From Bacteroidales bacterium (GTDB taxonomy: Bacteria > Bacteroidota > Bacteroidia > Bacteroidales > Marinilabiliaceae): 64,000 nt of DNA. Shown here piece by piece: positions 50,015 through 64,000 of this stretch. Position 1 is the first letter of the stretch; the number at the start of each line of letters is the position of its first letter. The DNA lies in assembly GCA_017539645.1 (NCBI GenBank), contig JAFYCM010000042.1, forward strand, positions 29,159-93,158, read 5' to 3'. Under the pieces are notes generated by a model, which made no database searches, was not told where the DNA came from, and worked only from the letters and a program-made list of their open reading frames with translations. A program made the position numbers and the translations under genes.

Positions 50015-51259
50015 TTATTTGTTGAAGAGCGACATGGCTTGTTTCTTTGCGCTGTCGGCTATCGCGATGTATGGTTTCATCGATGAATAGTCGGCGTGAC
50101 CAGTCCACTTCATAACTATCTCGGGCGGTATACCAAGCATGAGAGCGTTGCAGATGAACGTACGGCGTCCGCAATGCGTGCCAATGAGTTCGTATTTCGG
50201 GTGAACCTCTTCTATGCGTTTGTTACCTTTATAGTATACGATGGTCGTTGGTGTGTCGATGTCGCAGAGGCGCATAACATCTTTGAGCGCGGCGTTCATC
50301 TTTTGGTTGCTTATCACTGGCAAGCATCTGCCATCGGGCAAATCTGCATTGCGGTATCGGTTGAGTATGGCGCGGCTATGGTCGTTGAGGTCTATGTTGA
50401 GGCTGTCGTTGGTCTTTATTGTAGTAATACTTATGTAGTCGTCGAAAACGTTGCTCCACTTGAGGTTTGCCACGTCGGAGTAACGCAGCGAAGTGAAGCA
50501 GCAAAAGCAGAACACATCGCGCACTTGTCGGAGGTGAAGCGTTGGCAGCTCTGCCGATTCTACGCGCATCAGTTCGTCCCATTCGAGGAAAATCACCTTC
50601 TTTTCGCTCGATTTGAGTTTTGGTGCGAACGTCTCGAAGTCGTCCACGTTGAGATATTTATTGCGTTTTGCCCAGCGGAGAAACCACTTGAGGAAACTCA
50701 GTTGCTTGGCTATTGTAGCGTTGCGTAGGTCGCTGGTGATGCGAAGCGATTCCACGAAGTCCGATAGTCGGTCGGTGGTGAAGTCGTTTATATGTAGATT
50801 CTTGTCGAAGGCGAGAAGGTGGTTACGTAGAGCGTTGAACTTTGTATAGCTGGCATCAGACCAGTTGTTGAGTTTACCTTGGTGCGACACGAATTCATCG
50901 AGCAATTTATATACATCGTGCGCTTGCTGCTGGTTGTCGGTGGTGCGACCTATAAGTTTGTTCACCTCGGCGCGTATGGCATCGGGCGAAGCGGATGGTG
51001 TGAGGTTCTCGAAAGCCGATTCTATGGCATCGAGGTAGCGTTCTATTTCGCGGTTAATCTTAGCAGCTGGTATCTCTGCTTTGCCATGGTTGGTGTTGCG
51101 TTTGCAGCGTTGCGCCGTACGATCCCATTTATCAGGGTTGACGCGATAGCCAACGAGGAAAGCAATGTTTTTGCCACGATAGCGCACACGAATGCGCACA
51201 CGGGCATCGTCTTTGCCAGCTTCGCGGTCGGGGAATACACAAGTGGAATAATCTTTCAT
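50015..51259 (-). CDS. int: Tyrosine site-specific integrase
   Basis: A 414-residue phage integrase. N-terminal arm-binding domain (about 1-100), SAM-like core-binding domain (about 110-210), catalytic domain (about 225-410). Active-site residues: Arg259 in TSLRYSD, Lys likely near 282 (TIKTND), His362/Arg365 in THCGRRTF, His388 in TGHAD and nucleophile Tyr397 in KPYIAI. It would integrate and excise the phage between attP and attB. Placed leftward next to the repressor, as in many temperate phages. Confidence 0.93.
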   Translation of the reverse strand: MKDYSTCVFPDREAGKDDARVRIRVRYRGKNIAFLVGYRVNPDKWDRTAQRCKRNTNHGKAEIPAAKINREIERYLDAIESAFENLTPSASPDAIRAEVNKLIGRTTDNQQQAHDVYKLLDEFVSHQGKLNNWSDASYTKFNALRNHLLAFDKNLHINDFTTDRLSDFVESLRITSDLRNATIAKQLSFLKWFLRWAKRNKYLNVDDFETFAPKLKSSEKKVIFLEWDELMRVESAELPTLHLRQVRDVFCFCCFTSLRYSDVANLKWSNVFDDYISITTIKTNDSLNIDLNDHSRAILNRYRNADLPDGRCLPVISNQKMNAALKDVMRLCDIDTPTTIVYYKGNKRIEEVHPKYELIGTHCGRRTFICNALMLGIPPEIVMKWTGHADYSSMKPYIAIADSAKKQAMSLFNK

Positions 51260-51268
51260 CGGTTTCTT

Positions 51269-51937
51269 TTATCCTAAAGAGCTAATCACGCCCACCACCA
51301 TAGCTATATGTCGGACGGTGGCTAATGGTATGGTGAAGTCGGTATAGCGTTCGTTGAGCGAGTGACATATTATAGAGCCCTCTTCGGGTGCTCTGTTTAT
51401 CTCCTTCATTATTATGCCGCCAGTGGTATCGAGTACGTATATATGCCCCCATTGCAGGAATTGCGGCTCCGACACTTTGCGACATGCCACAATATCGCCA
51501 TTCTGGAATTTTGGCGACATGCTGTCTCCGTTTATCTGAATAAGGAAATCGGCGCTTATGTTAGAGAATAGAGGTACGACGTATTGTTCGCATTCGGAGA
51601 GTTTCACGCCCTCTTCGTCGAAGCCGCTGAGGAAACCCGCCGCCGCGCGTAGTGGTATGAGTGGAAGCGATTGTTGTGGCTTCTCGGTTGGCTTCTCTTG
51701 CACTGGCTGCGTTTTGAGCATTGCGCCTTCGCCATTTAGTAGCCACTCTTCATTTATATCTATGTAATGTCTAAGTATTTGTGTGATGAGTTTGTGACTA
51801 ATGTCGCGTTGCTCATCATTCTTGTACTTACCTATCGCACCATTACCCCATTCCAAATCCTTTTCAGCCCTATAATTACTGATTCTCTTGTAGTTGGTAT
51901 ACTCAAGAAACCTGTCTATAACTCTCGTCTTGCCCAT
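51269..51937 (-). CDS. Phage repressor, LexA/CI-like with S24 peptidase domain
   Basis: A 222-residue protein. N-terminal DNA-binding part (about 1-65; a short helical domain with VIDRFLEYTN and NGAIGKYKN resembling phage CI-type HTH), linker rich in Pro/Glu/Gln (about 75-92), and an S24 peptidase domain. The self-cleavage site is Ala100-Gly101 (RAAAGFLSG), Ser139 is in NGDSMSPKF and Lys178 in GGIIMKEI. So induction by RecA-stimulated cleavage is expected. It is divergent from the early genes and should bind the intergenic operator region. Confidence 0.88.
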   Translation of the reverse strand: MGKTRVIDRFLEYTNYKRISNYRAEKDLEWGNGAIGKYKNDEQRDISHKLITQILRHYIDINEEWLLNGEGAMLKTQPVQEKPTEKPQQSLPLIPLRAAAGFLSGFDEEGVKLSECEQYVVPLFSNISADFLIQINGDSMSPKFQNGDIVACRKVSEPQFLQWGHIYVLDTTGGIIMKEINRAPEEGSIICHSLNERYTDFTIPLATVRHIAMVVGVISSLG

Positions 51938-53633: not shown

Positions 53634-54566
53634 ATGAGAACGAGACTACAATTCAAGAATCGTGAGGAGTGGCTCGAAGCCCGTACGCAAGGCATCGGTG
53701 CAAGTGAGGTGGCAACCATCGTAGGACTCAACCCCTACGAGACACCTTACCAGCTGTGGCGTAGAAAAATGGGAATGGATGCACCCAAACAAGAGACATT
53801 CGCAATGAAGGCAGGACACTACATGGAGGAAGCCGTGGCGCGTTTCTTTGCCGATGAAAGCGGGGTAAAAGTGATTGATAGTACAGCGCCCGACTTCATG
53901 TTCATCGACAAAAACAAACCATTCCTCCGTGTGTCGCCCGACCGCCTCTATTGGCTGCCAAACATGCCTAAGAACGACGACAATAAGGGCATACTTGAGT
54001 GCAAGACCACCCAAAAGCAAATCGACCCCGACGACCTACCAAAGACCTGGTTCTGCCAAGTACAGATGAATCTCGGTGTGGCTCACTACGAACACGGTGC
54101 GCTTGCATGGCTCACAGCTGGACGCGAATTCGGCTACGTGAATATCGACTTCGCCCCCGACTTTTTCGAGTGGCTATCGGGCGAGGTTGAGAAGTTCTGG
54201 GTAGATAACATTCTCGGCAAGCAAGAGCCCGATATTGTCAACGTAGACGATGTACTAAAGAAGTTCGCACGCCCCACCGACGGCAAAGCCATAGAAGCCG
54301 ATAGCGAGATAATAGCTCACATCCTGAAGCTACGCGATGCACGCAAAGCCATTGCCCAGCTCGAAGAACAAGCCAAGCTAAGCGAGGATGCCATAAAGCT
54401 ATTCCTTGCCGATGCCGAAACACTGACACAAGCAGGTGAGACCCTTGCCACATGGAAGAGCACCACCAGCGCACGCCTCGACACCAAGGCGCTCAAAGCC
54501 GATATGCCCGACATATACGCCAAGTATGCCAAAGAGAGCATATCGAGACGATTCTTACTCAAGTAA
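53634..54566 (+). CDS. YqaJ-family phage exonuclease
   Basis: A 310-residue protein of the lambda-exonuclease-like PD-(D/E)xK group (YqaJ). The opening NREEWLEARTQGIGASEVATIVGLNPYETPYQLWRRKMG is diagnostic; the catalytic core is GHYMEEAVARFFADE, then ILECKTTQKQ (E-x-K) near 122-131 and WFCQVQMNLGV. The C-terminal third is helical. It would chew 5' ends to make single strands for the neighbouring annealing protein. Confidence 0.88.
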   Translation: MRTRLQFKNREEWLEARTQGIGASEVATIVGLNPYETPYQLWRRKMGMDAPKQETFAMKAGHYMEEAVARFFADESGVKVIDSTAPDFMFIDKNKPFLRVSPDRLYWLPNMPKNDDNKGILECKTTQKQIDPDDLPKTWFCQVQMNLGVAHYEHGALAWLTAGREFGYVNIDFAPDFFEWLSGEVEKFWVDNILGKQEPDIVNVDDVLKKFARPTDGKAIEADSEIIAHILKLRDARKAIAQLEEQAKLSEDAIKLFLADAETLTQAGETLATWKSTTSARLDTKALKADMPDIYAKYAKESISRRFLLK

Positions 54567-56586: not shown

Positions 56587-57237
56587 ATGAAGCTAACAAG
56601 AACTCAATTGAACGACATCTACGCCAATCGCACCGACGTAAGCAAGCTATTCAATAGCGGAAACTTCAGCGCACCGAAGCGCGGCATCTGTTGGCAAGCC
56701 ACCGCGAGCCTCACCGATGTGAAGCGTGTTATGTGGAATGTGCTTTGTCACGCAATATTCCGCGAGAGCAATGGCGAGAAGCAGCCAGTAGTGATGAAAG
56801 AGCAATTCAGCGCCATAGCCGAATGGCTTCACCACAACGACGGCAAAGGTTTACTCCTCTATGGCAGCTGTGGTCAGGGCAAAACGCTACTTGCTAAGTA
56901 TGTGATACCAGCTTGTCTTGAGATTATACACCACAAGATAGCGCACTACTACGACGCAGCAGAGCTACAAGACAACCGCGACGAGATGAAGATGGCGCTG
57001 TGGTATGGCATAACCGTTATCGATGACGTAGGAGCAGAGGCAACATCGATGTTCAAAGAGCAAGCCTTTTCGCGCCTAATAGACAATGCCGACAAGAACG
57101 GCAAGATAGTCATTGCCACAACCAACTACAGCGAAAAAGAGCTACAAGAGCGCTACGGAGCACGTGTCGTTGACCGCATCAAAGGCAACATGGTTCGCGT
57201 TATGTTCGACGGCAAAGAATCGCTACGCACAAAATAG
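56587..57237 (+). CDS. DnaC-like AAA+ helicase loader
   Basis: A 216-residue ATPase. Walker A GSCGQGKT at 93-100, Walker B ITVIDDVGAE with Asp146/Asp147, sensor-1-like IVIATTNYSEKELQERYGARVVDRI. This is the DnaC/IstB group that loads replicative DnaB helicase. It follows the replication-organizer gene by 11 bp, so it should bring host DnaB to the phage origin. Confidence 0.88.
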   Translation: MKLTRTQLNDIYANRTDVSKLFNSGNFSAPKRGICWQATASLTDVKRVMWNVLCHAIFRESNGEKQPVVMKEQFSAIAEWLHHNDGKGLLLYGSCGQGKTLLAKYVIPACLEIIHHKIAHYYDAAELQDNRDEMKMALWYGITVIDDVGAEATSMFKEQAFSRLIDNADKNGKIVIATTNYSEKELQERYGARVVDRIKGNMVRVMFDGKESLRTK

Positions 57238-59391: not shown

Positions 59392-59752
59392 AGGTTTTTA
59401 GTTATGTTTGTACAAACAAATCAAAAGTGGGAAGGCTTTCGCCCTCCCGAAAGTTCAGCGTCTGAAGATTAGTTTTACGCTCCACTTTCCAATCTTGAAT
59501 GAAATTTCGATCCTCATCTTCGATTGCTTTTGATTTGTTTTTCCTACTCTCTTCGAGGTTTTCGGATTCCCCTTGCAACCGCTATTTGATTGCACTACTA
59601 AGATAGTATTTATATTTGAATTTACAAAGAAAAAATCAAAGAAAAGCTGAATTTTGTATAAAAAATACAGCCACTAAAGCGAATATTTGAATTATTTGGG
59701 CAATAATTATTTTCTTGTACGTATTTTTGCATTCAAAACAAAACCAATAAAC
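59392..59752. other. Gene-free stretch with promoter ahead of the TAC cassette
   Basis: 360 bp without a gene. Words such as GTTTGTACAAAC (59408-59419, palindrome) near the left end may be the control site of the leftward small gene. At the right end TTTG (59695-59698) and TATTTTTG (59722-59729) form a -33/-7 pair with 23-bp spacing, ahead of the ATG at 59753. So the cassette has its own promoter. Confidence 0.45.
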
Positions 59753-59959
59753 ATGAGCGCAGAGGAGTTGATATTAGCACAATTAGATGAACTTTCTCGT
59801 ACGTTAAGCGAAGCAGAAATAAGTGAGATTGTTGGCAACGCAAGGAGAAAAGAGACTGATGTTGACGATGTCAATGCTGACATCTATAGGCAGTTTCTTG
59901 CTGATGAAATATACAAATCAGAATACTATTCTACAGAAGAATATAGCCACGCTGCATAA
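59753..59959 (+). CDS. Candidate antitoxin of a TAC cassette
   Basis: A 68-residue acidic protein from the ATG at 59753 (a longer frame from 59687 overlaps the promoter). Helical N-terminal half (AEELILAQLDELSRTLSEAEISEIVGNARRK), then a Tyr-rich flexible tail (YRQFLADEIYKSEYYSTEEYSHAA). TAC antitoxins have such a C-terminal tail (the chaperone-addiction segment) that a SecB-like chaperone holds; aromatic tails fit SecB binding. Its stop shares a base with the next ATG, so it is co-translated with the chaperone gene. No known antitoxin family is recognised; the role is inferred from context. Confidence 0.5.
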   Translation: MSAEELILAQLDELSRTLSEAEISEIVGNARRKETDVDDVNADIYRQFLADEIYKSEYYSTEEYSHAA

Positions 59960-60363
59960 TGGAAATTGCAAGATTCAGATTAGTCGATTACAAATTTACG
60001 CGCGCTTCGTTCGACTTTGTGTCTTTGAATAAAGAGGGCGCGTGGAATATTAACATAGAGCCATCAGGTATATACGACGAAGCGCATCACACCTACAAGC
60101 TCACTTTTGACTTTGACGCAAAAATTGGAGAGCAAACATCTTTGTCGGTTAAGTGTGTGGCTAACTATGAATTCGAGCGAAGTTTGGAAAATAACGAAAT
60201 ACCTGAATACTTCTACGCCAATAGTATAGCAATAGTATTCCCATATATTAGAGCATTCATAAGCACTATAACACTGCAAGCCAACATGCCAGCTCTCGTA
60301 ATGCCTACATACAACTTATCATCACTAAAGGAAAAGCTAAGGGACAATACGAGGACCATTTGA
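59959..60363 (+). CDS. SecB-like chaperone of a TAC cassette
   Basis: A 134-residue protein of SecB type. The SecB signature region is clear: EYFYANSIAIVFPYIRAFISTITLQANMPALVMPTYNL at residues 83-120, where SecB has the FPYAR-like segment, the long first helix and the P-x-L-x-L/M-P-x-x-(F/Y)-x-x-L closing strand. Upstream is the four-stranded beta sheet (KLTFDFDAKIG...SLSVKCVANYEFERSL). It is too short and diverged for the housekeeping export chaperone, and lies in a prophage between two small genes, as the chaperones of toxin-antitoxin-chaperone systems do. Confidence 0.8.
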   Translation: MEIARFRLVDYKFTRASFDFVSLNKEGAWNINIEPSGIYDEAHHTYKLTFDFDAKIGEQTSLSVKCVANYEFERSLENNEIPEYFYANSIAIVFPYIRAFISTITLQANMPALVMPTYNLSSLKEKLRDNTRTI

Positions 60364-60379
60364 GGCTAATAGTACGGCT

Positions 60380-60916
60380 ATGTTGGATGTCCTATATCAT
60401 ACTTCACAAGGGGAAGGGAAAATTTCGGAAGTAGTAAAATCAGCTCCGTTTCGAAGCGAAAATGATGGTTGGCTAAGCCAAGGTTATTACTTCTGGGAAG
60501 GCTTTATAGAACATGCGCATTATTGGGGCAAAACTCATTACCACGGCTCATACTACATATTCAAAGCAAAAGCCGTAAACAATATATGTGTATTCAGTTT
60601 ATTAGAACCGATTCACTTGAAAATATTCAATAAGACATGTGACTTAATTGGCAAAAACAGAAACGATATAACCGTACGAGACGTCATCAACTTCTTACGA
60701 GATAAAACTAAATTTAGCTTCGATGCAATAAAAGCGTATACATCTTTCGGTTCAATACGTGAAAAATGGATTCCATACGTAGAGAGCAACACGCGTCAAT
60801 TGCCAACGATGCCAGCTGTACAAATTTGTATTTTCGACAAACGCTCCATAGCAAGAATTGAATTCGTATATAGTAGTCTTGAAAACGATTGCTCAGAAGA
60901 TTTTATAATGGTGTAA
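60380..60916 (+). CDS. Candidate ADP-ribosyltransferase toxin of a TAC cassette
   Basis: A 178-residue protein. It follows the pattern of small ADP-ribosyltransferase-like proteins of the DUF3990 type: VLYHTSQG (His7), a loop, then GWLSQGYYFWEGFIEHAHYWG (Gly35, Tyr36/Tyr37, Ala46, Trp49), YYIFKAKAV, and near the end AVQICIFDKRSIARIEF with Gln148, giving an H-Y-Q arrangement. In CmdTAC the toxin CmdT is an ADP-ribosyltransferase that modifies mRNA. Here the gene is 16 bp after the SecB-like gene and is last. The assignment is by pattern, not by a database search. Confidence 0.55.
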   Translation: MLDVLYHTSQGEGKISEVVKSAPFRSENDGWLSQGYYFWEGFIEHAHYWGKTHYHGSYYIFKAKAVNNICVFSLLEPIHLKIFNKTCDLIGKNRNDITVRDVINFLRDKTKFSFDAIKAYTSFGSIREKWIPYVESNTRQLPTMPAVQICIFDKRSIARIEFVYSSLENDCSEDFIMV

Positions 60917-61033: not shown

Positions 61034-61609
61034 ATGTCAGCAGAAAGCCGTGATATTTCCATTCGCAAGCTCCGTATCAATACGGGACAAATAACAGGAC
61101 TGCCAAAGAACCCGCGTTTCATCCGCGGCAATCGTTTTGAGGCTCTCAAGCGCTCTATTCAAGATGCGCCCGAGATGCTTGCGCTGCGTGAACTCATTGT
61201 TTATCCTTACGACAAAGAGTACATCGTTATTGGTGGTAATATGCGCCTTCGCGCTTGCTCCGACCTCGGCTATAAAGAGCTACCATGTAAGGTGCTGCCA
61301 GCTGATACGCCCGTAGAGAAACTACGCGAATATGCCGTGAAGGATAATCTCGCTTTCGGCTCTGATGATTGGGACATCTTAGCCAACGAATGGGACGAAG
61401 ATGAACTATCCGATTGGGGTATGGAATTGCCGCAAGACTGGAATGCTAACGAACCCGATGACGAAGAAACAGAAACAAACGAACTAAGCGGTAAATCGTG
61501 CGTCAAAATTGCTTTCCAAAGCGACGATGACCTACTGCAATTTCTCGATATGTACACCTCCGAAATTGAGGGGCGTTTTACTTGCAAAATAACTTCAAGT
61601 GCAAAGTGA
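61034..61609 (+). CDS. ParB/Srx-like N-terminal domain protein
   Basis: A 191-residue protein. Residues about 8-110 are the ParB N-terminal (nuclease/CTPase-like) domain: ISIRKLRINTGQITGLPKNPRFIRGNRFEALKRSIQDAPEM, LRELIVYPYDKEYIVIGGNMRLRACSDLGYKELPCKVLP. The C-terminal part is acidic (DWDILANEWDEDELSDWGMELPQDW) as in phage ParB-like proteins placed next to DNA methylases and terminases. It lacks the HTH part of a plasmid ParB. Role unclear, perhaps DNA nicking or regulation before packaging. The 117 bp before it hold no gene, only TTTTCGCC-like words. Confidence 0.82.
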   Translation: MSAESRDISIRKLRINTGQITGLPKNPRFIRGNRFEALKRSIQDAPEMLALRELIVYPYDKEYIVIGGNMRLRACSDLGYKELPCKVLPADTPVEKLREYAVKDNLAFGSDDWDILANEWDEDELSDWGMELPQDWNANEPDDEETETNELSGKSCVKIAFQSDDDLLQFLDMYTSEIEGRFTCKITSSAK

Positions 61610-61631: not shown

Positions 61632-62042
61632 ATGAACGAGCAAAATTTGAAGTCTTTCGATAGTAACCAAAGCCGAGAAGAAGCCAAGAAAAACGGCGCT
61701 AAAGGCGGCATAGCAAGTGGCAAGGCTCGACGCGCCTACAAAAACCAACGTGCAACGCTCGAATGGCTACTAAGTAGGCCGTACCAAAAGAAGGGCGAAG
61801 ATGTAATCTCACCCATTACTGGCAAACCTATTACGATAGGCGAAGGGCTAACCACAGCCCAACTAAAGAAGGCTCTCACGGGCGATACTAAGTCGTATGT
61901 TGCTCTGCTCGATGTGCTTGGCGAACGTATACAAAACATCAACCAAGAGATAACCATCAAGAAGGATAAGTACGACGAGATGAGCGAAGAAGAGCTACGC
62001 GCCGAGGCTGAACGACTAACAAAGAGCATGGAGCAACAATAA
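61632..62042 (+). CDS. Probable terminase small subunit
   Basis: A 136-residue protein: a basic N-terminus (REEAKKNGAKGGIASGKARR), a helical middle with TLEWLLSRPY...LTTAQLKKALTGDTKSYVALLDVLGERI, and a charged C-terminal helix (EELRAEAERLTKSMEQQ). Helical DNA-binding proteins of this size sit directly before terL; here the gap is 1 bp. DUF5681-type phage proteins share the KNGxKGG opening. The call is by position and general shape. Confidence 0.65.
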   Translation: MNEQNLKSFDSNQSREEAKKNGAKGGIASGKARRAYKNQRATLEWLLSRPYQKKGEDVISPITGKPITIGEGLTTAQLKKALTGDTKSYVALLDVLGERIQNINQEITIKKDKYDEMSEEELRAEAERLTKSMEQQ

Positions 62043-62043
62043 G

Positions 62044-64000
62044 ATGGCAAAAGGATTGGCAGATAACGTGCGTAGGCTCGCAGATATTAAGCGGAGATTG
62101 GCGCAAATGCGATTCGCCGATTTCCTCGACTACATTACGCCTACATACGACCGCCAATGGTTTCATACCATCATCGCAAACAAATGTCAAGCACTCATTG
62201 AGGGCACGCTCGGCACAAATAGGCTTATGGTGTTCGTTCCGCCGCAACATGGCAAAGCCTTGCCTATTGATACGCCAGTGTTTACGACAAAAGGATGGAA
62301 GAATCATGGCGATTTGAACGATGGCGATTACGTATTTGGCGCAGATGGCAAGCCCAAAGCGGTAATCGCGAATAGTGGAGCATACGAATGGAATGTGCAG
62401 ACAATGTCGTTTCAGTGTGGTTATTCGATTGAGTGCGCGAAAGAGCATTTGTGGAAATTGAGCGTTGAATATGATGACCACAAAGGACGCAGAGAAGTAG
62501 TACAAGAAGCTGGCGAGATATACAAGCGTAAGCATCGACGCAGTCCAGCAATAGAGTGCGCTCCAGCACTACAGACAGAAGAACGACAACTACCAATCGA
62601 CCCATATATATTGGGCGTTTGGCTTGGCGATGGATTGAAAGGACAAGGTGTATTTGTAGAAGGCGAAGACATAGAGTATTGGTCGCAATTCGGCGAAACG
62701 AGACGCGTCAAACCTACGTATTATCGAATAAAGGTTGATGGTCTGTATAAAGCCTTGCGAGAATCAGGTATACTCCGATATAAACACATACCGATAGACT
62801 ACCTTCTATCAAGCGTAGAGCAGCGAACAGCATTGCTTTGTGGTATTATGGATACCGATGGCACAGTAGGACGCGACAACGGAAACTGCGAATTTTGTCA
62901 GAAAGAAGGACAATTAGCTGAAGATGTTTACACGCTCATTCGCTCACTTGGTTATAAGGCGCGTCGTAATACATACGATATGAAGCTAAATGGTCGTATC
63001 GTAGGCAAGAAGGTGCGCATATTGTTCAATCCAGATAAAGATGCTGAGATTTTCCGTTTGCCTCGTAAAAAGGTTCGACTAATTGACAAAACGAAAGGCG
63101 ATAGAGGTGATAAAAATAAGTTCTTTATTACGTCGTATGGGAGCAAACCTCGCACTACTATGGTTAATTGCATACAAGTTGAAGGCGGTATGTATTTGGC
63201 TGGGCGCGACTTAATACCTACCCACAATAGCCAAATTGTATCGCGCTCGTTTCCAGCGTGGTATTTGGGTAAAAATCCGAAAGCAAAGATTGTCGGTTGC
63301 TCCTACTCCGCAGAACTCGCACAGCAATTTTCGCGAGCCATACAACGCACCATCGACAGCGAAGAGTATAGCGCTGCTTTCCCAAAGACATATCTAAACT
63401 CGCCTAACGTAAGTACAGATGCTCGCAAAGGCTACCTACGCAACATAGATATATTTGAGACCGTTGGCTATGGCGGTTTCTATAAGGCAGTAGGCGTAGG
63501 CGGTTCGCTCACGGGTACGCCAGTAGACCTTGGCATCATCGACGACCCAGTGAAGGACGCGATGGAAGCTAATTCGCAGACCTATCGCGATCGCGTTTGG
63601 GCGTGGTATACCGACGTATTTCTCACCCGATTGCACAACGAGAGTAAGCAAATATTCATTATGACGCGTTGGCACGAAGATGACCTTGCTGGGCGACTAC
63701 TCAAACAAGAGCCTGACAAGTGGACGGTCGTAAAATTTCCAGCTCTCAAAGAAGATGACACTAACCCCGAAGACCCGCGACAGATTGGCGAAGCACTTTG
63801 GGAAGCACGTCACAGCCGCGAGCGCTTGTTAGAGGTTGAAGCACGCAGCCCACGAACCTTTGCTTCGCTCTACCAACAACGACCAGTTATCATTGGCGGT
63901 AACATCGTAAAGCGCGAATGGTTTCAGCTTATGCCACTTGCTGAGTTCAATCGAATACACAACGGCGAACCTATCATATTCTTCATCGATACAGCCTACA
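62044..64000 (+). CDS. terL: Terminase large subunit with intein (3' end outside window)
   Basis: The frame is open from 62044 to the window end (652 codons). Residues 1-71 are the terminase N-terminus, ending FVPPQHGK, the first part of Walker A. An intein (62257-63228) follows. The host protein resumes at SQIVSRSFPAWYLG, so after splicing Walker A reads PPQHGKS. Further on: IVGCSYSAELAQQFSRAIQ, Walker B LGIIDDPVKDA, motif III-like IFIMTRWHEDDLAGRLL (coupling) and the start of the nuclease domain (PIIFFIDTAY, first Asp). TerL powers DNA packaging and cuts the concatemer. Confidence 0.93.
   Translation, partial: MAKGLADNVRRLADIKRRLAQMRFADFLDYITPTYDRQWFHTIIANKCQALIEGTLGTNRLMVFVPPQHGKALPIDTPVFTTKGWKNHGDLNDGDYVFGADGKPKAVIANSGAYEWNVQTMSFQCGYSIECAKEHLWKLSVEYDDHKGRREVVQEAGEIYKRKHRRSPAIECAPALQTEERQLPIDPYILGVWLGDGLKGQGVFVEGEDIEYWSQFGETRRVKPTYYRIKVDGLYKALRESGILRYKHIPIDYLLSSVEQRTALLCGIMDTDGTVGRDNGNCEFCQKEGQLAEDVYTLIRSLGYKARRNTYDMKLNGRIVGKKVRILFNPDKDAEIFRLPRKKVRLIDKTKGDRGDKNKFFITSYGSKPRTTMVNCIQVEGGMYLAGRDLIPTHNSQIVSRSFPAWYLGKNPKAKIVGCSYSAELAQQFSRAIQRTIDSEEYSAAFPKTYLNSPNVSTDARKGYLRNIDIFETVGYGGFYKAVGVGGSLTGTPVDLGIIDDPVKDAMEANSQTYRDRVWAWYTDVFLTRLHNESKQIFIMTRWHEDDLAGRLLKQEPDKWTVVKFPALKEDDTNPEDPRQIGEALWEARHSRERLLEVEARSPRTFASLYQQRPVIIGGNIVKREWFQLMPLAEFNRIHNGEPIIFFIDTAY
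62257..63228 (+). other. Class 3 intein with LAGLIDADG homing endonuclease in terL
   Basis: 324 residues, beginning Ala (ALPIDTPVFTTKGW, block A) and ending THN before Ser+1. Block B has ECAKEHLWKL with His64 and Trp66. The endonuclease motifs are YILGVWLGDG (block C) and LLCGIMDTDG (block E). Block F is VNCIQVEGGMYLAGRD and block G IPTHN. Non-Cys residue 1, Trp in block B, Cys in block F and Thr in block G are the WCT hallmark of class 3 inteins, which start splicing from the block F Cys. The insertion is between the Lys and Ser of Walker A, so the ATPase works only after splicing. Confidence 0.9.

What the first reader, a model, noticed from the sequence alone, without database searches (positions are those of the whole stretch)
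59753..60916. Prophage-borne toxin-antitoxin-chaperone cassette with a SecB-like chaperone and an ART-like toxin
Three rightward genes, the first two sharing a base and the third 16 bp later, have a private promoter (TATTTTTG, 59722). Gene 2 has the SecB signature (residues 83-120). Gene 3 shows the His / Gly-x-Tyr-Phe / Gln pattern of a small ADP-ribosyltransferase. Gene 1 is a 68-aa acidic protein with an aromatic tail, as expected for an antitoxin whose end is held by the chaperone. CmdTAC of E. coli has the same three roles (ART toxin against mRNA, antitoxin, SecB-like chaperone) and guards against phages. Here the order is antitoxin, chaperone, toxin, in a Bacteroidota prophage, with proteins that I do not recognise as described members. 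It sits between early and packaging genes like a superinfection-defence moron.
Basis: partly seen in the sequence, partly recalled or inferred. Interest (0 to 1): 0.92.

Follow-up and report, generated by a model that had tools for sequence, protein, structure and literature searches.

The report
Prophage CmdTAC-family defence cassette, genes permuted
A dormant virus in a Bacteroidota bacterium carries a three-gene toxin, antitoxin and chaperone cassette of the known CmdTAC anti-phage family, but with the genes in a different order that turns out to be common in this phylum.

Summary
In detail: three coupled rightward genes (59753-60916) lie in a prophage between DnaC-like and ParB/terminase genes. 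Models give a SecB fold for gene 2 and only a weak ART-type match for gene 3 (PARP and RES, E about 0.005, TM about 0.4). Gene 1 is antitoxin by position, size, acidity and AA tail only; a profile of 60 related antitoxins does not find it.
New is the architecture. Of 94 nonredundant loci, from searches seeded mostly with A-C-T proteins, 69 have chaperone then toxin and 25 toxin first. Named A-C-T loci are Bacteroidota but for one. A-C-T toxins mostly have Gln instead of His in the ART triad (64 of 67 readable); the window's keeps His. Order needs 2-3 changes on the trees; one origin is neither shown nor rejected. Low G+C and two promoter-like sites suggest prophage cargo. Defence is inferred, not shown.

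The parts
59585..59618 (+). promoter-like site, TTTG-N22-TAnnTTTG
   Evidence: consensus match only, Bacteroidota consensus recalled
59695..59729 (+). promoter-like site TTTG-N23-TATTTTTG just upstream of gene 1
   Evidence: consensus match only
59753..59959 (+). gene 1, presumed antitoxin (CmdA position), 68 aa, net charge -11, tail EYSHAA
   Evidence: no family match; profile of 60 A-C-T antitoxins does not detect it
59959..60363 (+). gene 2, SecB-like TAC chaperone (CmdC)
   Evidence: PADLOC PD-T4-9_C 1.2e-43; Pfam SecB 2.2e-5, just under cut-off; profile of 42 relatives to PDB SecB 4.6e-7; AF2 pLDDT 92.2 with SecB and Rv1957 as best folds
60380..60916 (+). gene 3, ART-like toxin (CmdT), H7-Y37-Q148
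   Evidence: PADLOC PD-T4-9_A 1.6e-33; AF2 pLDDT 91.4; Foldseek RES and PARP, best E 0.0047
50015..51259 (-). prophage integrase (context)
   Evidence: phrog_1 9.2e-39
51269..51937 (-). CI-like repressor (context)
   Evidence: phrog_4 4e-26
53634..54566 (+). RecE-like exonuclease (context)
   Evidence: phrog_434 3.1e-82
56587..57237 (+). DnaC-like helicase loader (context)
   Evidence: phrog_3277 3e-22
61034..61609 (+). ParB-like gene directly downstream (context)
   Evidence: phrog_17622 5.5e-58, of unknown function; phrog_620 ParB-like 1.1e-9
61632..62042 (+). phrog_2412 protein in the small-terminase position (context; role inferred from position)
   Evidence: phrog_2412 1.7e-16, unknown function
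62044..63999 (+). large terminase with LAGLIDADG insert, runs off the contig end (context)
   Evidence: Terminase_6N 2.5e-12, LAGLIDADG_3 3.1e-5

Best explanation
The three genes are a prophage-borne member of the CmdTAC (PD-T4-9) toxin-antitoxin-chaperone family, of a Bacteroidota type whose operon is permuted to antitoxin-chaperone-toxin. Most likely working (inferred from E. coli CmdTAC): gene 1 helps fold and then neutralises the ART toxin (gene 3); its AA tail is a ClpXP-type degron that the SecB-like chaperone (gene 2) keeps covered. A superinfecting phage makes a structural protein, in E. coli the capsid protein, that draws the chaperone away; gene 1 is degraded, gene 3 is freed and ADP-ribosylates RNA, translation stops and the phage does not multiply. 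The private promoter would keep the cassette on in the lysogen, and making antitoxin and chaperone before toxin would keep it silent. Shown here: family membership of genes 2 and 3, SecB fold, gene order and its recurrence, prophage location, signs of cargo. Supported weakly: ART fold. Inferred: antitoxin role of gene 1, degron, trigger, RNA target, defence.
For: PADLOC PD-T4-9_A and _C hits; 47 of 47 aligned toxins match PD-T4-9_A (partly circular, some of these loci were found with that model); Pfam SecB in 39 of 42 aligned chaperones; SecB fold with the Rv1957-ChAD complex as rank 2; RES and PARP fold neighbours; Pfam PARP in 2 of 47 toxins, best 6.6e-4; Tyr37 in 47 of 47, Gln148 in 44 of 47; toxin on the same strand within 1500 bases of the chaperone in 103 of 123 loci with a chaperone hit; antitoxin candidates end in AA in 37 of 90 loci, but 0 of 94 chaperones and 0 of 94 toxins do; the host tmRNA tag is GENSYALAA; the A-C-T antitoxin profile scores 6 of 24 toxin-first antitoxins and the annotated PD-T4-9_B of L165 above the best of 1300 shuffles, one of them only just; mechanism of CmdTAC from PMC11618068.
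Against: Gene 1 is not recognised by the antitoxin profile (46 of its 200 shuffles score higher) nor convincingly by pairwise alignment (89 tried; best 0 of 200 shuffles for one toxin-first antitoxin, L027, about what so many tests may give). Foldseek for gene 3 has no match below E 0.001 and TM about 0.4, and no solved structure is found by sequence. Codon scores of genes 1 and 3 are low. The prophage would face its own capsid on induction, which the capsid-trigger model must explain. The contig ends in the terminase, so the prophage cannot be shown to be whole.
Confidence: 0.82

Rival explanations
1. Same family and anatomy, but the cassette serves mainly the prophage's own maintenance: loss of the prophage leads to loss of chaperone and antitoxin and to toxin release (addiction), with no role against other phages.
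For: Signs of prophage cargo with own promoter-like sites; AA-tailed, probably labile antitoxins; TA modules are known for addiction (recalled).
Against: The characterised relative is a defence system (PMC11618068); an integrated prophage is already stably inherited; L003 lies between ORFs that look like an epimerase and a glycosyltransferase (read by eye), not among phage genes.
Confidence: 0.2
2. The toxin is a NAD+-degrading enzyme like the RES toxins rather than an RNA ADP-ribosyltransferase; the rest of the TAC logic is the same.
For: The best Foldseek match is a RES toxin, 9r35; in A-C-T loci the first triad residue is usually Gln (64 of 67 readable), so the chemistry may differ.
Against: The PADLOC family is that of CmdT, which modifies RNA (PMC11618068); PARP catalytic domains match about as well; the window's toxin keeps His7.
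Confidence: 0.12
3. Gene 2 is a phage-encoded SecB homologue for folding phage proteins and genes 1 and 3 are unrelated neighbours.
For: SecB-like genes are reported in certain phages (abstract of PMC4257090).
Against: Chaperone and toxin homologues are adjacent in 103 of 123 loci with a chaperone hit, in A-C-T loci with a median start-minus-end difference of 4; genes 1 and 2 share a base.
Confidence: 0.02

Closest known systems
CmdTAC / PD-T4-9 (E. coli ECOR22; PMC9519451, PMC11618068)
   Same: Toxin and chaperone belong to PADLOC's PD-T4-9_A and _C families; H-Y-Q triad of the HY-[E,D,Q] type; tripartite; antitoxin with an AA end like the LAA end of CmdA.
   Different: Order A-C-T instead of T-A-C; antitoxin not recognisable by sequence; Bacteroidota prophage; trigger and target untested. 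The E. coli sequences themselves were not at hand to align.
PD-T4-9 of Vibrio phage 10N.286.54.F9_PE001 (PQ189358)
   Same: Phage-borne cassette annotated PD-T4-9 A, B, C, next to replication gene A on one side and antirepressor, late-control and portal genes on the other; antitoxin ends FAA.
   Different: T-A-C order, Vibrio; toxin 26% identical to the window's.
HigBAC / TAC of Mycobacterium tuberculosis (Rv1957 chaperone)
   Same: SecB-like chaperone protecting an antitoxin tail (PMC6377645 passages); Rv1957 is among the nearest solved folds to gene 2.
   Different: Ribonuclease toxin HigB and antitoxin HigA, unrelated to genes 3 and 1 (PMC9098466 abstract start in listing; RelE type recalled).
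RES toxins (Xre-RES TA)
   Same: Best fold neighbour of gene 3.
   Different: No chaperone and NAD+ degradation (both recalled); not among the sequence matches.

Membership tests
CmdTAC / PD-T4-9 | CmdT-family toxin | tested here: met
   PADLOC PD-T4-9_A 1.6e-33 and 6.4e-16
CmdTAC / PD-T4-9 | SecB-like CmdC chaperone next to the toxin | tested here: met
   PADLOC PD-T4-9_C 1.2e-43; 16 bases apart
CmdTAC / PD-T4-9 | third small gene acting as antitoxin | tested here: inconclusive
   gene present and coupled, AA tail; no sequence match. 9 other antitoxins scanned also gave no PD-T4-9 match. The authors leave CmdA out of calling because it varies (PMC11618068 section 34)
CmdTAC / PD-T4-9 | catalytic HY-[E,D,Q] triad | tested here: met
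   H7, Y37, Q148 by alignment; not aligned to E. coli CmdT itself
CmdTAC / PD-T4-9 | gene order toxin-antitoxin-chaperone | tested here: not met
   order is A-C-T here and in 68 other nonredundant loci. The 2022 homologue search required toxin first (PMC9519451 passage), the 2024 calling rule only CmdT and CmdC within two proteins, so I treat order as a variant, not as a bar
CmdTAC / PD-T4-9 | ART fold of the toxin | tested here: inconclusive
   model pLDDT 91.4; the listed Foldseek matches are nearly all RES and PARP but E 0.005 to 0.03 and TM about 0.4
CmdTAC / PD-T4-9 | phage defence by RNA ADP-ribosylation | not testable with these tools
   needs experiment
SecB | SecB fold and profile | tested here: met
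   the Pfam score of the single protein, 24.8, is just under the gathering score 26
SecB | canonical protein-export SecB (NCBIfam equivalogs) | tested here: not met
   best equivalog match 21.3 bits against a cut-off of 181

The most novel reading that the evidence does not exclude
The A-C-T loci form a distinct Bacteroidota branch of CmdTAC in which operon order and the first ART triad residue (Gln for His) changed together, and which temperate phages repeatedly carry as superinfection-defence cargo; making antitoxin and chaperone before toxin may be what allows a phage to bring the cassette into a naive cell without killing it, and the His-to-Gln change may alter the chemistry or the target.
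Probability: 0.3. Interest if true: 0.62.

Novelty: new variant of a known kind. Interest (0 to 1): 0.45.

Why it matters
CmdTAC is reported as an mRNA-ADP-ribosylating defence system. A permuted form that recurs in Bacteroidota, often with a changed triad residue and sometimes carried by phages, gives natural variants to ask which parts of the mechanism are essential: does order matter for silent establishment, does Gln serve in place of His, how does a prophage avoid being shut down by its own capsid. A search rule that requires toxin-first order would miss these loci.

Tried and rejected
Rejected or empty: gene 2 as a canonical SecB; a solved structure found by sequence for gene 3 (none convincing); homology of gene 1 to the other antitoxins (not detected); relatives of gene 2 in viral contigs by single-sequence search (none confirmed; the alignment search found 21); gene 2 among phage records by tblastn (one 40-residue match, E 7e-3); near DNA relatives of the prophage among phage records (none). 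The H/Q and order association rests on at most 2 independent contrasts on the chaperone tree, on which H/Q needs 5 changes, so it is not shown to be independent of ancestry. One clade of A-C-T is neither shown nor rejected: p-AU 0.263 and 0.492, but 0% of 200 bootstrap trees in either set have it as one side of a branch, and starred branches of the chaperone tree force 2 changes, with long branches in play. The genome-contig scan was seeded with an alignment in which 4 of 5 rows are A-C-T, so 69 against 25 is not a census.

Counts and drops: 128 loci held; 5 without chaperone, 20 with a chaperone but no toxin on its strand within 1500 bases, 103 with both; 9 duplicates dropped, 94 kept; near-identical pairs such as L045 and L062 remain. 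In 9 of 69 A-C-T loci the toxin piece is shorter than 140 aa (truncated, split or at a contig edge); they were counted for order, and those under the length limits were left out of trees. L103, L128, L098 and L016 (long branches) were left out; other long rows were kept. L028 is the one named A-C-T locus outside Bacteroidota (Lachnospiraceae MAG, 6.2 kb contig), possibly misbinned.

Papers: PMC11618068 abstract, outline, sections 6, 12, 34, first part of 41 and passages; PMC9519451, PMC4257090 and PMC6377645 passages only; all others search listings with the start of the abstract only. In the listings and passages that I saw from the searches I met no description of the A-C-T order; most listed papers were not opened and figures are not held, so Fig. 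5a of PMC9519451 and Extended Data Fig. 1b of PMC11618068, which show homologues in context, were not seen.

Full report
What is there. Genes 1, 2 and 3 are at 59753-59959, 59959-60363 and 60380-60916. The window is the right end of contig C14 of a 3.4-Mb, 101-contig genome; the window end is the contig end. Left of the integrase lie chromosomal genes (SurE, LpxB, ABC transporter). The prophage starts near the integrase and CI-like repressor (50015-51937, minus strand) and runs rightward through RecE-like, DnaC-like, the cassette, a ParB-like gene, a phrog_2412 protein and a large terminase cut by the contig end.

Family. PADLOC names gene 3 PD-T4-9_A (1.6e-33, 6.4e-16) and gene 2 PD-T4-9_C (1.2e-43, 4.9e-14); gene 1 matches nothing. 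PD-T4-9 was renamed CmdTAC (PMC9519451 passages). Pfam gives SecB for gene 2 at 2.2e-5, 24.8 bits against a gathering score of 26; NCBIfam's export-SecB equivalogs match far below their cut-offs. Of 42 aligned relatives 39 match Pfam SecB, and their profile finds three SecB sequences in the PDB at 4.6e-7 to 3.8e-6. Models: gene 2 pLDDT 92.2, with SecB and Rv1957-ChAD as best folds, TM about 0.65; gene 3 pLDDT 91.4, with RES toxin and PARP1/2 catalytic domains making up 49 of the 50 listed matches, but E 0.005 to 0.03 and TM about 0.4. That RES and PARP are ART-type folds is recalled. So the SecB fold is firm, and the ART fold is supported but weakly by structure; the family match carries it.

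Order. Twelve of 61 genomes (the window's own and 60 relatives) have a chaperone match: three have A-C-T order (L001 the window, L002, L003; in L003 the toxin reads as two overlapping pieces), one is an A-C fragment at a contig edge (L011), two are toxin-first (L010, L012) and six belong to another kind of TAC (L004-L009, below). With 12 more loci, one of them the window again, from a toxin-family search of 395 genomes, 80 from genome contigs and 24 from viral contigs, 128 loci were classified: 77 chaperone-then-toxin, 26 toxin-then-chaperone, 20 without adjacent toxin, 5 without chaperone; after removing duplicates 69 against 25. In A-C-T loci the toxin start minus chaperone end has a median of 4; it is 17 in the window. 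Named A-C-T loci are Bacteroidota except L028; named toxin-first loci are Bacillota, Planctomycetota and Bacteroidota, and Pseudomonadota or a phage of it in two annotated records. On careful trees order needs 2 changes (chaperone, 80 rows) and 3 (toxin, 81 rows), against shuffled means near 19. One clade of A-C-T is not rejected by the AU test (p 0.263, 0.492), but no bootstrap tree of 200 has it in either set.

Active site. The first triad residue, read by pattern, is Gln in 64, His in 3 and undetermined in 2 of 69 A-C-T toxins, and His in 22, Gln in 1, undetermined in 2 of 25 toxin-first ones. The window's toxin is one of the three A-C-T toxins with His. On the chaperone tree this residue needs 5 changes and there are only 2 independent contrasts with order. 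In alignment A5 Tyr37 is invariant in 47 of 47 and Gln148 kept in 44 of 47. CmdT's inferred catalytic residue is Y41 (PMC11618068 section 6); I did not have its sequence to align.

Antitoxin. In 90 of 94 loci a small ORF of 50-170 aa ends next to the chaperone; 24 of 66 A-C-T and 13 of 24 toxin-first ones end in AA, against 0 of 94 chaperones and 0 of 94 toxins. The longest candidate was taken, which makes some of these doubtful, notably those overlapping the chaperone by 27 or more bases. The host's tmRNA tag ends YALAA, and E. coli CmdA ends LAA and is degraded by ClpP. Many A-C-T antitoxins instead end in aromatic, hydrophobic tails such as ASDFFLI. The A-C-T antitoxin profile (60 sequences) scores L014, L026, L027, L104, L092, L106 (6 of 24 toxin-first antitoxins; L106 only just) and the annotated PD-T4-9_B of L165 above the best of 1300 shuffles, so an antitoxin domain is shared by both orders: the same kinds of parts were reordered. 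The window's gene 1 is not found by it (1.9 bits; 46 of its 200 shuffles score higher), so its role rests on position, coupling, acidity and tail.

Cargo. The cassette has 38.2% G+C against 47.2% and 45.2% around it, and two full promoter-like sites just upstream. In a same-genus genome (L130, L155) the homologue of 58455 (28% identity) is followed by one 182-aa ORF of no Pfam family and then the ParB-like gene, with no cassette between; a 30-residue match to gene 1 at E 0.006 lies some 6 kb away and was not followed up. Of 22 viral-contig loci with the ParB relative none gave a tblastn match to any of the three genes at 1e-3; two of them (L140, L152) hold under 400 bases upstream of that gene. 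Seven viral-contig A-C-T loci were checked with one or two chosen proteins each; all seven have a phage-type gene within about 5 kb: integrase (L025, L112), tape measure (L108, L113), neck protein (L110), small terminase (L114), capsid (L113, L116), endolysin (L112); that collection is viral by selection. A public Vibrio phage carries a toxin-first cassette annotated PD-T4-9, and an Acinetobacter plasmid a toxin-first triad with annotated SecB and an antitoxin ending FAA.

Mechanism. By analogy with CmdTAC (abstract and sections 6, 12 of PMC11618068): the chaperone leaves for a phage capsid protein, the antitoxin is degraded, the toxin modifies GA in single-stranded RNA, translation stops. None of this is tested here for the window's genes. 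A prophage has the extra problem that its own capsid could trigger it on induction; the structural genes are beyond the contig end, so this could not be examined.

Verdict. A real cassette, correctly seen, belonging to a known family; the permuted order recurs widely in Bacteroidota, and I met no description of it in the listings and passages that I saw (most papers were not opened, figures not seen). Interest moderate.

Noticed in passing
L004 636-1827; L005 709-1902; L006 688-1905; L007 702-1902; L009 701-1908: A different TAC-like triad: HEPN domain protein (Pfam HEPN above cut-off in all five), a ~125-aa protein ending much like the tmRNA tag (TNYALAA, NNYALAA, TYALAA, SYAIAA, YLAIAA), then a SecB-like chaperone. 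L008 shows the last two genes only. The listing of the search HEPN+SecB+antitoxin (titles and abstract starts only) showed no paper that describes it.
   Followed up: partly
window 62044-63999: Large terminase interrupted by an intein-like LAGLIDADG insert right after a PPQHGK Walker-A-like stretch (Terminase_6N and LAGLIDADG_3); the insert seems to begin with Ala and end with HN before Ser. The intein reading is inference.
   Followed up: partly
L130 837-1385: 182-aa ORF of no Pfam family occupying the place of the cassette in a same-genus genome, so this spot may be a variable cargo slot (one comparison).
   Followed up: partly
L002 1232-1468; L025 1458-1694; L048 5731-5973; L060 3973-4209: Second tail class in A-C-T antitoxin candidates, hydrophobic and aromatic (DFFLI, GFFLF, DFFYFSI, DFFLV) without AA, suggesting another way of chaperone hold or degradation.
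   Followed up: no
L020-L024: Toxin-family hits without a chaperone in the locus; in L020, L023 and L024 the protein is 210-219 aa ('FHGCD...WLGHG') and is preceded by a 57-60-aa ORF; perhaps another ART-like TA group.
   Followed up: no
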